Shown: piece after piece, positions 12,188-16,312 of the stretch
How the letters are laid out: every line of letters starts with the position of its first letter
Numbering within the stretch: position 1 is the first letter of the stretch
From: a virus
Virus record (IMG/VR): IMGVR_UViG_3300023276_000595
Coordinates: 1 to 42,507 of that record
Strand: one strand, 5' to 3'
DNA length: 42,507 bases
Made by a program: the position numbers and the translations under genes
Notes under the pieces: model-generated
The model's database searches: none
The model's input: the letters and a program-made list of their open reading frames with translations, nothing else
Told to the model about the DNA's origin: nothing

Positions 12188-15100
12188 TTAGTAGTAAGTG
12201 CCGTTATAAGATTGATTAATTTTGTAATCAGTATCTTCTGATATCTTTTCTAAAGTTTCAGATTTAAGCTCTACTTCAACCTTTACAGTTTGAGGAGGTT
12301 GCCTCATAGAAGCATTTGAAGCTTTACGATTAACATCTCCGAACGGGTTGGTTATGGCGTCCATAAAAGTTGGTACTTTAAAATCCGTCCTACCTGCTAT
12401 GTGTTTACCTCCTGTATTGAATTCAGGGGCTAGTCTATCCGCAGCCATTACGAAGATAGGTATCATGTTTAAGGCTTGTACAAACTTACCTATACCCTTT
12501 TTAGTTGTTTGCTCAGTAGGTGTAATACCACCCCCACCACCTAAACCACCTATCGGCATATTAGTTACAAAAACCTTTTGTACTCCAAGTTGTCCAAGTA
12601 ACCCACTTCCACCTTTACCGCCTGCTGATGGGCTTTTGCCTCCTAGCCCAACTAAACCTTTAACACCCTTGAGTGCTTGAAAAGCTTTCTTTACTCCCCA
12701 TACAGCTAAACCTAAACCTACAATACCACCTGTAACAAGTGTCACACCTTTCAACATATCATTAAAGAAGTCCTTGCCGCCTTGTGGTAATTTGTTTACT
12801 AAATCATAGATCGCTGCATACACCAACCTAAAAGGTGCTACCAAGCCTATTACAGCGCCTTTGAATAAACCACCAAGAAATTTTGACAAAGGTTTTGAAG
12901 CTTTCATTAGATCATTGAAGCCATCCAGTATGTAAGATAAACCTCCTCTAATACCTTCATCGAATAGTGATTCTTGGAATATCTGTAATCCAGCTGTACT
13001 TTGAGCTAGTTTAACATTCAAACCTTTTAGTGCTAATTCCAATGCACCATTAGCGTTAGCAGCGTCTTTTAAACGAGCTGCTACAAAAGGTAGAACATCC
13101 TTAGCTAAAGCCTTACCATCCTCCATTAGTTTATTAAGTTGAGCAACACTACCATCAGTCTTGCCAGCGTCTTTTGCTGCTGCTGCAAATATTTGTACAG
13201 CACCAGGTAATCGTTCCTATGGTATTCAAAGAGTGGCGCTACACACTCCCCAGCAATCTTAATTGCATCTGCATGTTTCCATACAGTCTAGACTATATCT
13301 TCTGTCTTTCAACAGCCTACCGTTTGGAGGGTCAATAGCTTACCCCCTACTCCGCTACATTCATCACGGATAGTCGTTTGGCACATCCGACTTATGTCGG
13401 ACTTCGCTCAGGATTGCCTCCACCATTATGTGGTAAGGGATTCCCCGATTAGATAGGTTTATACTGACCCAACGTTAAGCCAGTTGTCCTCTACATTGTA
13501 TTCGGAAATGGTCGCAACACCACTTCCCGCCTATTATGGCTGCTCTAGATCTCCCTAGAGATTAGACTATATCTTCTCCCTGAAACAGGGGTTGTACACT
13601 TCGAATGCCATTTGCTTGCTATTCTACTCTCTTTCGAGATAGTCGTTGATCTTGTATCTCATGTGTTAGTACTGAGACGGTAGATGCGGATTTACTCTAT
13701 TGTTAACGTTTTTACCATACCCATCCCGTTATGAATGGTGTTGCTATACTATCACTAATATAGAACGGTAGTTAACACCTTACAAGTGTTTCCCGCAGTT
13801 CACACAATTTTACATACACATTACTGTGTAAGGAACCTAGAAATTAAGCTCTTCCTTATAATTCAATGACTCACGCAACTAAGTCACCAGTTCTCATCGC
13901 TTCTCAGCGGAACTTCTACATGTCACCACGCAGAATAGGTCATATCATAACCCACAGCATCACCTGTTGGGTTCCTCCCGTTTCCATTTAATCAAGAATT
14001 ACATGATTATTACTCATCACTTGAACCCTATGCTTGGCTGTACACTACTTCCTTATCCTCTGGTTGAGGCGGTTTCGCTGACCGTCGAACGTTACTTTAC
14101 TCGTCTATTAACTTTAATATCATATTGTTCCCAAATATGCTTCCATGCCAAACCAGCTTTTATTTTTGTAGATTGTTGTCTACTTAGATTAAAACGTGCT
14201 GCTGCTTCTTTCGGCATACCACCATCTTCATAAAACTTACAGACTGCATGAACTATCTCTTCGGATAGTTCTGCTCGTCCGTTCAAAACACCAGTGCGTG
14301 GTAGAGTCAACCCTGTATCCCAAGCGTGTCTCGCATTAAACTCTTGTGTGCACCATTCTAAGTTTGATAAACTGTTGTTTAGTTTATTACCATCTTTATG
14401 GTTTACACATACTACAAAAGGTGCTTTTACCGCACACTCCGCTTTAAGTTCTTCTGAAGGTTCTGGTAAGAAATGTATAGCCAGTAGTCTGTGGATTTTA
14501 ACAGTATGGTACTTTCCATTTATACTCAACCCTGAGACATAGTACCCTTGCTTGCTTACCCACATTTTTAATGTCCTACATAACCTTATATTCCTTATAA
14601 TACCATTTTCATTTATCTCGTAATTTGGAAAATCTATAATAGTTTTAAACATAACACACCTCTCATTAACATAAAAGAGGATATTGTAAAGTCTTCGCTG
14701 CTGATTGTCAATAGCTAAATTAGTTCTATTGAGTTCCCAGACAATTAAAGAGGTTTTTCGATAACTATTACTAGTTAAAGGGCCAAAGTTTTAGCCTGTA
14801 TTTTTGTCTTCAAGTATATTCAATACAGTTCGTTAATCTGTACCAGCAGCATTACCTGCATCTATATGTTTCCATATAGTCTAGACTATATCTTCTAAGA
14901 AATTAATTCTTAGCCAATCATTTTCGATTTAAAGCTTTCGCTACCACTTGGCCCTACTCCGCTTCTCTACATACACGGATAGTCGTTAGGCATGTCCACA
15001 TTGCTGTGGTTTAGCACGGTAGGTTACCATATGAAGTTTGTACACTCCACGTAGGCTTTCCCCGTTTAAGATCGGAAGAGCAAGAAAATTTACCCATCAT

Positions 15101-16312
15101 TTGCCCAATAGCTTTAACTGCACCTGCTACTTCATCAGTAGTAAGTCCTCGTGCTGTGGACAGTTCTGCGATACCTGTAAATAATGCTTTGGTATCTTCT
15201 TTTGTAATCCCTCCTCGGTTAGCTAAAAGCTGAGATAGTGCTTTAGAGTTTTGTACAAGATCACCACCTAGCCGTAAAGTTTCTGCTCTTACAAAAGCAA
15301 TGTTCTCTTTTGCATCTGCTGAGTTATCACTCACTGCAAGCATAGAAGACCTGATACGTTGCATACCCATACCTGTACGAGCTACAGCACCAATACCTTG
15401 CATAGCAGTATAAACACTAAAAGCTGCACCAGCCATTTGCTTTAAACTGCCTGTTAAGCGTTGTTGTGCAAAGTTCTGTTTGTTTTGGAGTCGTAAATTC
15501 TCCTTGTGTATGGCAGATTCTCTTCGTAGGACACTGTTATGCTCATTCATCACATCCTTAAGTTTATGGGCATTTTTAATCTGTCTTAACTCAAGAAGGA
15601 TAGCTTCCCGTCTCTCTTTATTCAGGTCTTGCACAAGAGGAGAGAGTTCAAAAGCATATATCTTAGATAGTCTAGCTGCTTCCTTGTTTTCTGCTCTCAT
15701 AGCTTTAACAGCTTGAGTTTGCTCTTCTTTTTTGAGAGAACGTATAGATTGGATACGTGCCTTACGTTTAGCAGCGTTCTGTTTACGTAGGTTTTCTTCT
15801 TCTTTAATAGCTTGTTTATTAGAATCGGATAACCAAGCATCTAAGCGCTTCTGTTCTGCAGCCTCCGACTTCATCCTTTCAGCTTTCTTAGAGGAGGCTT
15901 CCTTGTCTATACGCATATCCTCCTCTTTTAACGCAGTACTAAATGCCTTTTGCCTATCATTAGCTTCCTTCTGTCTTGCAGTATTCTCCTTCAAAGTTTC
16001 GGCTTGAGCTTTCGTATCCGCTTGTTGTCTAGCAAGTTCAGCGGGAGGTCTTCTTGGACCAAATTCCGAGGTTACTCTCACATCAGAAATATCGGCACCA
16101 AGCGCCTTCTTAACAGATTGCACTTCTTTCTTTAAATCTTTAATCTTGTTCTTTGTTTCAGTGATACCAGACATCTTAAGCTTTAGTGTATCTATACTTG
16201 ATACGGCTTTCTTATAACGCCTGATATTATTAAACATACGTTTCCGTGACTTGAGATCGTCTTGCCACTTAACACTGTTTATTACTGATATTCCCTTTAC
16301 TGAATCTACCAT
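12188..16312 (-). CDS. Tape-measure protein, five exons (four group I introns)
   Basis: Proposed coding segments in transcription order: 16312-15092, 14810-14793, 13854-13847, 13493-13478 and 13216-12188. Joined they give 763 codons in one frame. Exon 1 (407 residues) has a long coiled coil at about 50-290 and then LQGIGAVARTGMGMQRI and DEVAGAVKAIGQMMG. Exons 2-4 supply KTKIQA, EEL and RGQLA; exon 5 opens ERLPGAVQIF and has membrane-like Gly/Ala/Val segments before ending NQSYNGTYY. The joined region reproduces the conserved tape-measure segment (family pattern GK.saEELrGQL.ErlPGA). The gene sits between the tail chaperone and the Dit-like gene. It sets tail length and fills the tube. ATG 16312 has GAGG upstream. 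Confidence 0.88.
13217..13477 (-). ncRNA. Group I intron 4 of tape-measure gene (261 nt, no ORF)
   Basis: It starts TAACGTTGGGTCAGT. Guide GGTCAGT pairs with exon ACTGGCT (7 bp, 8-nt loop). P3/P4 is TAATCGGGGAATCCC, with a P5 hairpin CCACATAATGGTGG. The Q element is GCAATCCTGAGC, the R element AAACGACTATCC (13368-13379 complement) and the S element AAGATATAGTCT (13290-13301 complement). It ends TTTGAATACCATAG, with the terminal G at 13217, followed by GAA CGA TTA (ERL). The R-to-S region is strikingly similar to intron 1. Confidence 0.9.
13478..13493 (-). other. Micro-exon 4 of tape-measure gene (16 nt)
   Basis: TAGAGGACAACTGGCT (minus strand) has its first T completing the Leu codon and then encodes RGQLA. 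Its 3' end ACTGGCT pairs perfectly over 7 positions (including the required U-G and one further G-U) with GGTCAGT in intron 4. The TAG at its start is out of frame in the spliced mRNA. Confidence 0.85.
13494..13846 (-). ncRNA. Group I intron 3 of tape-measure gene (353 nt, no ORF)
   Basis: It starts TAATTTCTAGGTTCC, with the guide GGTTCCTT pairing to exon GAAGAGCT. The P2 hairpin TACACA-GTAA-TGTGTA has the same GTAA tetraloop as intron 2. The P4/P5 region is GCGGGAAACACTTGTAAGGTGTT. The R element is ATCAACGACTATC (13638-13650 complement) and the S element AAGATATAGTCT (13564-13575 complement). It ends CCGAATACAATG with the terminal G at 13494, resembling the td intron end. Confidence 0.82.
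13847..13854 (-). other. Micro-exon 3 of tape-measure gene (8 nt)
   Basis: GAAGAGCT (minus strand) lies between introns 2 and 3 and encodes E, E and the first two bases of L. It pairs with GGTTCCTT of intron 3 (complement of 13837-13830) over 7 of 8 positions with the U-G at the splice site. With the first base of exon 4 it completes CTT (Leu), giving EEL in front of RGQLA. Confidence 0.8.
13855..14792 (-). ncRNA. Group I intron 2 of tape-measure gene (938 nt, encodes HNH nuclease)
   Basis: Order on the minus strand: P1 (exon GGCT with intron GGCC), P2 hairpin AACTA-GTAA-TAGTT, and the P4/P5 region CTGGGAACTCAATAG...CTATTGACAATC with GCAGCGAAGAC. Then come the HNH ORF, the R element GTTCGACGGTCAG (complement of 14078-14090) and the S element GATATGACCTAT (13935-13946). 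P7 has co-changed to GGTCA/TGACC compared with GACTA/TAGTC in the other three introns. After S, the stretch GCGTGGTGACATGTAG closely parallels the td intron. The intron ends ATTGAATTATAAG, with the terminal G at 13855. Boundaries are inferred from exon phase and P1. Confidence 0.82.
14092..14652 (-). CDS. Intron-encoded HNH homing endonuclease (NUMOD4)
   Basis: 186 residues, ATG 14652 with GAGAGGTGTGTT upstream. A NUMOD4-type start (FPNYEINENGIIRN) is followed by the HNH core: KIHRLLAIHFLPEP, then VNHKDGNKLNNSLSNLEWCT with catalytic H, D, N and H/N residues, then NARHAWDTG. The C-terminus (LSEEIVHAVCKFYEDGGMPKEAAARFNLSRQQSTKIKAG) is a helix-turn-helix DNA-binding domain. It lies in the P6-region loop of intron 2, and its stop codon directly abuts the intron R element. 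It presumably cuts the intronless tape-measure gene to drive homing. Confidence 0.92.
   Translation of the reverse strand: MFKTIIDFPNYEINENGIIRNIRLCRTLKMWVSKQGYYVSGLSINGKYHTVKIHRLLAIHFLPEPSEELKAECAVKAPFVVCVNHKDGNKLNNSLSNLEWCTQEFNARHAWDTGLTLPRTGVLNGRAELSEEIVHAVCKFYEDGGMPKEAAARFNLSRQQSTKIKAGLAWKHIWEQYDIKVNRRVK
14793..14810 (-). other. Micro-exon 2 of tape-measure gene (18 nt, KTKIQA)
   Basis: Six codons AAG ACA AAA ATA CAG GCT lie between introns 1 and 2. The encoded KTKIQA matches the KGKvsA step of the tape-measure motif. The 3' end GGCT pairs with GGCC (14784-14781) of intron 2 across an 8-nt loop. Confidence 0.85.
14811..15091 (-). ncRNA. Group I intron 1 of tape-measure gene (281 nt, no ORF)
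   Basis: The core matches the T4 td intron layout. P3/P4 starts TAAACGGGG (complement of 15060-15068), followed by the CCGTGCTAAA element, an R element AACGACTATCC (14977-14987) and an S element AAGATATAGTCT (14883-14894). P7 is GACTA pairing with TAGTC. The 5' exon end GGGT (15095-15092) can pair with GCTC in the intron (15081-15078), with the usual U-G at the splice site, across a 10-nt loop. The intron ends TTGAATATACTTG with the terminal G at 14811. Boundaries leave phase 0. Confidence 0.88.

What the first reader, a model, noticed from the sequence alone, without database searches (positions are those of the whole stretch)
13217..15091. Four group I introns packed into 42 coding bases of the tape-measure gene
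On the minus strand there are four separate R/S core pairs: three with AAGATATAGTCT and GACTA-type P7, and one with co-changed GATATGACC and GGTCA. They interrupt the gene after GGT, GGCT, AGCT and GGCT. Removing 15091-14811, 14792-13855, 13846-13494 and 13477-13217 restores a single frame of 763 codons and rebuilds the conserved GK.saEELrGQL.ErlPGA-type segment exactly. Each 5' exon end can pair with a guide 8-10 nt into its intron, and each intron ends in G after a GAATA(C/T)-like stretch, as in the T4 td intron. Multiple group I introns in one phage gene are known (for example in staphylococcal phages). Four within 42 coding nt is, as far as I know, exceptional.
Basis: partly seen in the sequence, partly recalled or inferred. 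Interest (0 to 1): 0.96.

Follow-up and report, generated by a model that had tools for sequence, protein, structure and literature searches.

The report
Four-intron cluster in phage tail gene
A bacterial virus carries four self-splicing RNA introns squeezed into 42 letters of its tail-length gene, one coding piece being only 8 letters long; related marine phages carry three to five introns in the same hot spot, and removal of three of them was already shown by others in the cholera phage ICP1.

Summary
Four group I introns interrupt the tape-measure gene on the minus strand, separated by exons of 18, 8 and 16 nt. Joining the exons gives one 763-aa tape-measure protein. Each intron has a G-binding helix (P7), a P1 helix with U·G at the 5' splice site, a 4-6 bp P10 helix with the 3' exon, and a terminal G. 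Rfam finds all four, two above its cut-off.

It is not unique. About 22 related phage loci (Vibrio, Enterovibrio, Pseudoalteromonas) carry one to five introns at ten recurring sites within 84 nt of the most conserved part of this gene. vB_CoeS_P1 has the same four sites and H101 has five. Vibrio cholerae phage ICP1 has three, and its four-exon mRNA was shown by RT-PCR (Barth et al. 2023). That paper's text does not call them group I introns.

Introns and their HNH endonucleases group by insertion site across phages, so each site has its own mobile lineage. The 8-nt exon is just long enough for P10 of the intron before it and P1 of the intron after it. Splicing of this contig's own RNA is untested.

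The parts
15092..16312 (-). Exon 1 of the tape-measure gene (ATG at 16312; 407 codons up to ...QMMG)
   Evidence: spliced protein matches PF20155 TMP_3 at E 3.9e-15
14811..15091 (-). Group I intron 1, 281 nt, site 117 in the motif numbering, no ORF; P7 GACTA 14984-14980 / TAGTC 14888-14884; guide starts at 15081; ends ...TTGAATATACTTG
   Evidence: RF00028 43.0 bits; DP boundary; P1/P10; P7
14793..14810 (-). Exon 2, 18 nt (AAGACAAAAATACAGGCT = KTKIQA)
13855..14792 (-). Group I intron 2, 938 nt, site 135, carries the HNH ORF; P7 GGTCA 14083-14079 / TGACC 13942-13938; guide starts at 14784
   Evidence: RF00028 24.0 bits on the 5' half only; same-site orthologues without ORF score 71-80 bits; P7; alignment A3
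14092..14652 (-). HNH_3 homing-endonuclease-like ORF, 186 aa, inside intron 2; nearest relatives are the site-135 ORFs of ICP1 M4 (57% identity) and L025 (54%)
   Evidence: PF13392 E 2e-7; phrog_59 E 7.9e-40; BLASTP and tree
13847..13854 (-). Exon 3, 8 nt (GAAGAGCT); nt 1-4 pair in P10 of intron 2, nt 4-8 in P1 of intron 3
13494..13846 (-). Group I intron 3, 353 nt, site 143, no ORF; P7 GACTA 13644-13640 / TAGTC 13569-13565; guide starts at 13837; P10 of 6 bp
   Evidence: RF00028 68.1 bits
13478..13493 (-). Exon 4, 16 nt (TAGAGGACAACTGGCT)
13217..13477 (-). Group I intron 4, 261 nt, site 159, no ORF; P7 GACTA 13375-13371 / TAGTC 13295-13291; guide starts at 13469; P1 of 7 bp
   Evidence: RF00028 55.1 bits
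12188..13216 (-). Exon 5 of the tape-measure gene (ERLPGAVQIF... to stop)
   Evidence: TIGR02675 match spans the joined exons, aa 386-461

Best explanation
The tape-measure gene of this myovirus contig is split into five exons by four separate, autocatalytic group I introns, probably of the phage IA type. All four must be removed from the mRNA to give the 763-aa protein. Each intron folds its own P3-P8 core, holds its 5' exon by a guide (P1, U-G), binds guanosine in P7, and aligns the 3' exon by P10. The 18-, 8- and 16-nt exons are workable because P1 and P10 each need only 4-7 nt; the 8-nt exon is used almost end to end, nt 1-4 for P10 of intron 2 and nt 4-8 for P1 of intron 3. The introns were acquired one by one at sites in the most conserved stretch of the gene, each site having its own lineage of intron and HNH endonuclease. 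The single endonuclease gene now present, in intron 2, is likely to spread the whole cluster into intronless relatives by co-conversion. Shown here: boundaries, cores, guide pairing, frame, and orthology by site. Inferred: splicing in vivo in this phage, homing, and the co-conversion hitch-hiking.
For: Exact boundary recovery by an independent method. Single 763-aa frame with tape-measure domains across the junctions. Four RF00028 hits. P7 co-varies among four pentamer pairs, GACTA/TAGTC, GACCA/TGGTC, GATCA/TGATC and, in window intron 2, GGTCA/TGACC. P1 and P10 pairing over 46 introns far above random sites: P1 5.18 against 1.13 (sd 0.23), P10 4.66 against 2.02 (sd 0.17), though orthologous introns are not independent. 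[quoted passage not shown] Each site is present or absent independently: L031 lacks site 135, L025 has only 135, L007 and L008 have only 143. Introns and endonucleases group by site.
Against: No RNA data exist for this contig. Introns 1 and 2 score below Rfam's gathering threshold, and the intron 2 hit covers only its 5' half because an ORF splits the core. The 8-nt exon cannot be placed by protein homology alone; it rests on the guide pairing, the 3' consensus and the ICP1 precedent. The ICP1 paper's text gives the number of exons but not their lengths (its figure is not held), so the 8- and 16-nt exons of ICP1 are my prediction. Homing and co-conversion are untested.
Confidence: 0.95

Rival explanations
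1. Fewer than four independent introns: for example introns 2 and 3 act as one unit (twintron), or a mini-exon is skipped in the functional mRNA, so the annotated mini-exons are not real exons.
For: Skipping exon 2, exons 3+4, or all three mini-exons keeps the reading frame. Exon skipping by phage group I introns is known: dominant in SIOphi terminase (PMC11878797), and in Twort by the title of a cited paper.
Against: Each intron has its own complete core and guide. Sites 117, 135, 143 and 159 are occupied independently in other phages. Skipping would delete A/K/EE/L/Q residues that are invariant or nearly so in 14 tape-measure proteins. ICP1 has four exons by RT-PCR (PMC10448857).
Confidence: 0.03
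2. The gene is decayed or an assembly artefact: insertions disrupted the tape-measure gene and no splicing occurs.
For: The contig is an IMG/VR fragment without RNA data, and the unspliced gene has a stop 27 codons into intron 1 (ORF 15011-16312).
Against: The same sites carry homologous introns in several cultured, sequenced phages. Exons are in frame and free of stops in the window and in five relatives. P7 compensatory changes show selection on RNA structure.
Confidence: 0.02

Closest known systems
ICP1 tape-measure gene (Vibrio cholerae phage; Barth et al. 2023, PMC10448857)
   Same: Tape-measure gene cut by introns at sites homologous to the window's 135, 143 and 159; HNH_3 ORF in one or two of them; the site-135 ORF of isolate M4 is 57% identical to the window's; splicing shown by RNA-seq, RT-PCR and Sanger sequencing.
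   Different: Three introns, not four (no site 117). The paper's text describes them as introns carrying HEGs and does not assign them to group I (the term occurs only in its reference list).
Vibrio phage vB_CoeS_P1 and IMG/VR contigs L029-L033 (tape-measure gene)
   Same: vB_CoeS_P1 has all four sites 117, 135, 143, 159 with the same 18-, 8- and 16-nt exons. L029/L030 have 117, 135, 143; L031/L033 have 117, 143, 159.
   Different: No ORF in any intron of vB_CoeS_P1. In GenBank the gene is two separate 'tail length tape measure' ORFs without introns marked.
Pseudoalteromonas phage H101 (tape-measure gene)
   Same: Group I introns at 135 and 143 with the same 8-nt exon between them; one HNH ORF.
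   Different: Five introns in 64 nt (110, 135, 143, 154, 174), the densest case found here.
Staphylococcus phage Twort and Bacillus phages of Bastillevirinae (multiple group I introns in one gene; PMC11878797)
   Same: Two or three group I introns per gene; small exons and exon skipping seen.
   Different: Other genes (DNA polymerase, terminase, ribonucleotide reductase and others) and other insertion sites.

Membership tests
Group I intron (RF00028) | Match to the group I covariance model | tested here: met
   Four hits, 68.1, 55.1, 43.0 and 24.0 bits; only two reach the gathering score of 50. Introns at the same sites in other phages score well above it, e.g. site 117 73.7 and site 135 80.0 bits.
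Group I intron (RF00028) | P7 guanosine-binding helix with conserved R and S elements | tested here: met
   Found in all four, with compensatory change in intron 2.
Group I intron (RF00028) | P1 with U-G at the 5' splice site, P10 with the 3' exon, terminal G | tested here: met
Group I intron (RF00028) | Guanosine-initiated self-splicing | not testable with these tools
   Needs in vitro transcription with labelled GTP.
Group I subgroup IA | P7.1/P7.2 insertions between P7 and P3' | tested here: inconclusive
   Extra stem-forming sequence sits between R and P3' in the cmscan alignments; subgroup models were not run.
Mobile group I intron (homing) | Intron-encoded HNH endonuclease that cuts the intronless site | not testable with these tools
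   HNH_3 domain present and closest to endonucleases of the same site; cleavage not tested.
ICP1-type tape-measure intron cluster | Introns at homologous sites of the tape-measure motif | tested here: met
   Sites 135, 143 and 159 shared with ICP1.

The most novel reading that the evidence does not exclude
The most conserved motif of marine myovirus tape-measure genes is a general group I intron hot spot: at least ten insertion sites in 84 nt, up to five introns in one gene, each site with its own intron and HNH endonuclease lineage. Introns can sit 8 nt apart because the exon holds P10 of one intron and P1 of the next side by side, and one endonuclease can carry the whole cluster by co-conversion.
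Probability: 0.75. Interest if true: 0.7.

Novelty: new member of a known kind. Interest (0 to 1): 0.6.

Why it matters
It places the spliced ICP1 tape-measure introns (not typed in the paper's text) in group I, and shows they are one case of a recurrent hot spot in which natural group I introns sit only 8 to 25 nt apart. That gives a set of natural test constructs for old questions: how small an exon can be, in what order adjacent ribozymes splice, whether P10 and the next P1 compete, and whether one homing endonuclease can move several introns at once. For annotation, tape-measure genes listed as two ORFs in many Vibrio phages should be merged.

Tried and rejected
A first spliced alignment put the ICP1_2006_E 8-nt exon inside the endonuclease ORF; adding the observed 3' end consensus moved it to a position consistent with the published architecture. 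IBT_VpB-34 (L009) looked intron-split but is a frameshift with overlapping ORFs. 501E54-1 (L013) is a group I intron next to a DNA polymerase I gene, not in the tape-measure gene. L034 site-135 and site-159 boundaries do not follow the terminal-G rule cleanly and are uncertain. The search with the full 763-aa protein in viral contigs found no close relative, and genome contigs gave none. An upstream-exon alignment was not conserved enough to search with. A first P7 scan used a wrong pattern and was replaced. No covariance model of my own was built: the site-135 alignment misplaces the P5 insertion of window intron 2.

Full report
WHAT WAS CLAIMED AND CHECKED. The window (a 42,507-base virus record) carries on its minus strand a tail module: sheath, tail assembly chaperone, tape measure, baseplate hub and wedge. 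The finding says that four group I introns interrupt the tape-measure gene within 42 coding bases. Removing the four stated segments gives one 763-aa frame with a single terminal stop. The joined protein matches Pfam TMP_3 (aa 309-481, E 3.9e-15) and TIGR02675 (aa 386-461, E 2.3e-9), both spanning the four junctions at aa 407, 413, 415.7 and 421.

INDEPENDENT RECOVERY OF THE BOUNDARIES. I built a profile from eight intronless tape-measure proteins of other phages and aligned it to unspliced DNA, allowing introns only after T and ending in G, with no information on intron positions. I number sites by coding nucleotide in the 71-codon profile: the window has 117, 135, 143 and 159.

RNA EVIDENCE. 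Rfam's group I model hits all four: 68.1, 55.1, 43.0 and 24.0 bits, E 1.6e-16 to 0.0027. Only two reach the gathering score. Intron 2 is weak because a 186-aa HNH_3 ORF (14092-14652) splits its core; same-site introns without an ORF in other phages score 71-80 bits. In every window intron the S element lies 79-91 nt before the 3' splice site and pairs with an upstream R element; the pair is GACTA/TAGTC in introns 1, 3 and 4 and GGTCA/TGACC in intron 2. Across the 46 introns examined, four complementary variants occur, which is compensatory change in the G-binding helix. Each 5' exon pairs with a guide starting at intron nt 9-11 with U-G at the splice site, and each 3' exon pairs for 4-6 bp with the adjoining guide strand. 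Testing each guide against all 2320 positions of the spliced mRNA, only 6, 4, 1 and 1 positions do as well on both helices, the true site included each time.

THE 8-NT EXON. Exon 3, GAAGAGCT, is recognised from both sides: nt 1-4 form P10 with intron 2 and nt 4-8 form P1 with intron 3. The two helices share one nucleotide, so both introns can in principle be served by an exon this short. The order of splicing is not determined. Three exon-skipping products would keep the frame but would remove highly conserved residues.

RELATIVES. The same spliced alignment and Rfam searches were applied to related phages. vB_CoeS_P1: 117, 135, 143, 159. S4-7: 99, 117, 135, 143. Pseudoalteromonas phage H101: 110, 135, 143, 154, 174. 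1.084.O: 117, 135, 159. ICP1: 135, 143, 159. L029: 117, 135, 143. L031: 117, 143, 159. L035: 90, 110, 143. L034: 90, 110, 135, 159 (last two boundaries uncertain). J2-1 (L037): 110, 135, 174. HM1: 110, 135, 171. K412: 110, 143. Single introns: 277E43-1, PS17B-2, L023, L024, P018-4 and R16F at 143; L025 and PH357 at 135; qdvp001 at 117. At least fifteen relatives are intronless in this stretch (L014-L021, L026, L027, L032, L036, L038-L040). Ten sites fall in 84 nt, and the highest-conservation 28-aa window of the whole protein (0.62 against a mean of 0.23) contains all four window sites. Spliced proteins of five relatives have no internal stop.

EXPERIMENTAL PRECEDENT. Barth et al. [quoted passage not shown] My prediction reproduces this for both isolates: 330, 1112 (ORF) and 328 nt in 2006_E; 921 (ORF), 372 and 990 (ORF) nt in M4. 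The exon lengths of 8 and 16 nt are my prediction; the paper's figure is not held. The text uses 'group I intron' only in its reference list.

EVOLUTION. On a tree of 45 introns the insertion site needs 11 changes against 27.9 when shuffled, 0 of 200 as low: introns at one site in different phages are mostly orthologous. The HNH ORFs also group by site (6 changes against 10.5; the window's ORF falls with the site-135 ORFs of ICP1 M4 at 57% and L025 at 54% identity). One exception matters: window intron 1 (site 117) and intron 4 (site 159) are 61% identical and fall, with the site-117 and site-159 introns of vB_CoeS_P1 and L031, in one supported group (98/98), so an intron has probably moved between sites 42 nt apart. 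Most clusters carry only one or two endonuclease ORFs, which suggests (inference) that one endonuclease moves its ORF-less neighbours by co-conversion.

JUDGEMENT. The finding is real and well described. As a kind it is a new member of the ICP1-type, group I intron-split tape-measure genes, here with a fourth site that vB_CoeS_P1 shares. What appears undescribed, in the searched library only, is the hot spot as such: group I identity, ten shared sites, site-specific lineages and the P10/P1-filled 8-nt exon. Searches of open-access papers for tape-measure group I introns found no such description, but subscription papers, including the 1999 Twort paper, could not be read.

Noticed in passing
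window 17200-16419, minus strand: Tail assembly chaperone (phrog_3840) with a C CCT TTT slippery site at about 16712 and an open -1 frame running to about 16420, the usual programmed frameshift before tape-measure genes.
   Followed up: partly
window 14811-15091 and 13217-13477: Introns 1 and 4 of the window are 61% identical and share a supported group with the site-117 and site-159 introns of relatives, which suggests that an intron moved between these sites.
   Followed up: partly
L013:2445-2707 (Vibrio phage 501E54-1): Group I intron hit (55.9 bits) at the end of a DNA polymerase I gene, similar in sequence to the window's introns.
   Followed up: no
L034:2429-2620 and L035:2429-2621: Very short group I introns (192-193 nt, 57-58 bits) at site 90, near the lower size limit for the class.
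   Followed up: no
L009 (Vibrio phage IBT_VpB-34) about 2185: Tape-measure gene annotated as two overlapping ORFs; looks like a frameshift in GGGGAG, sequencing error or real, not an intron.
   Followed up: no
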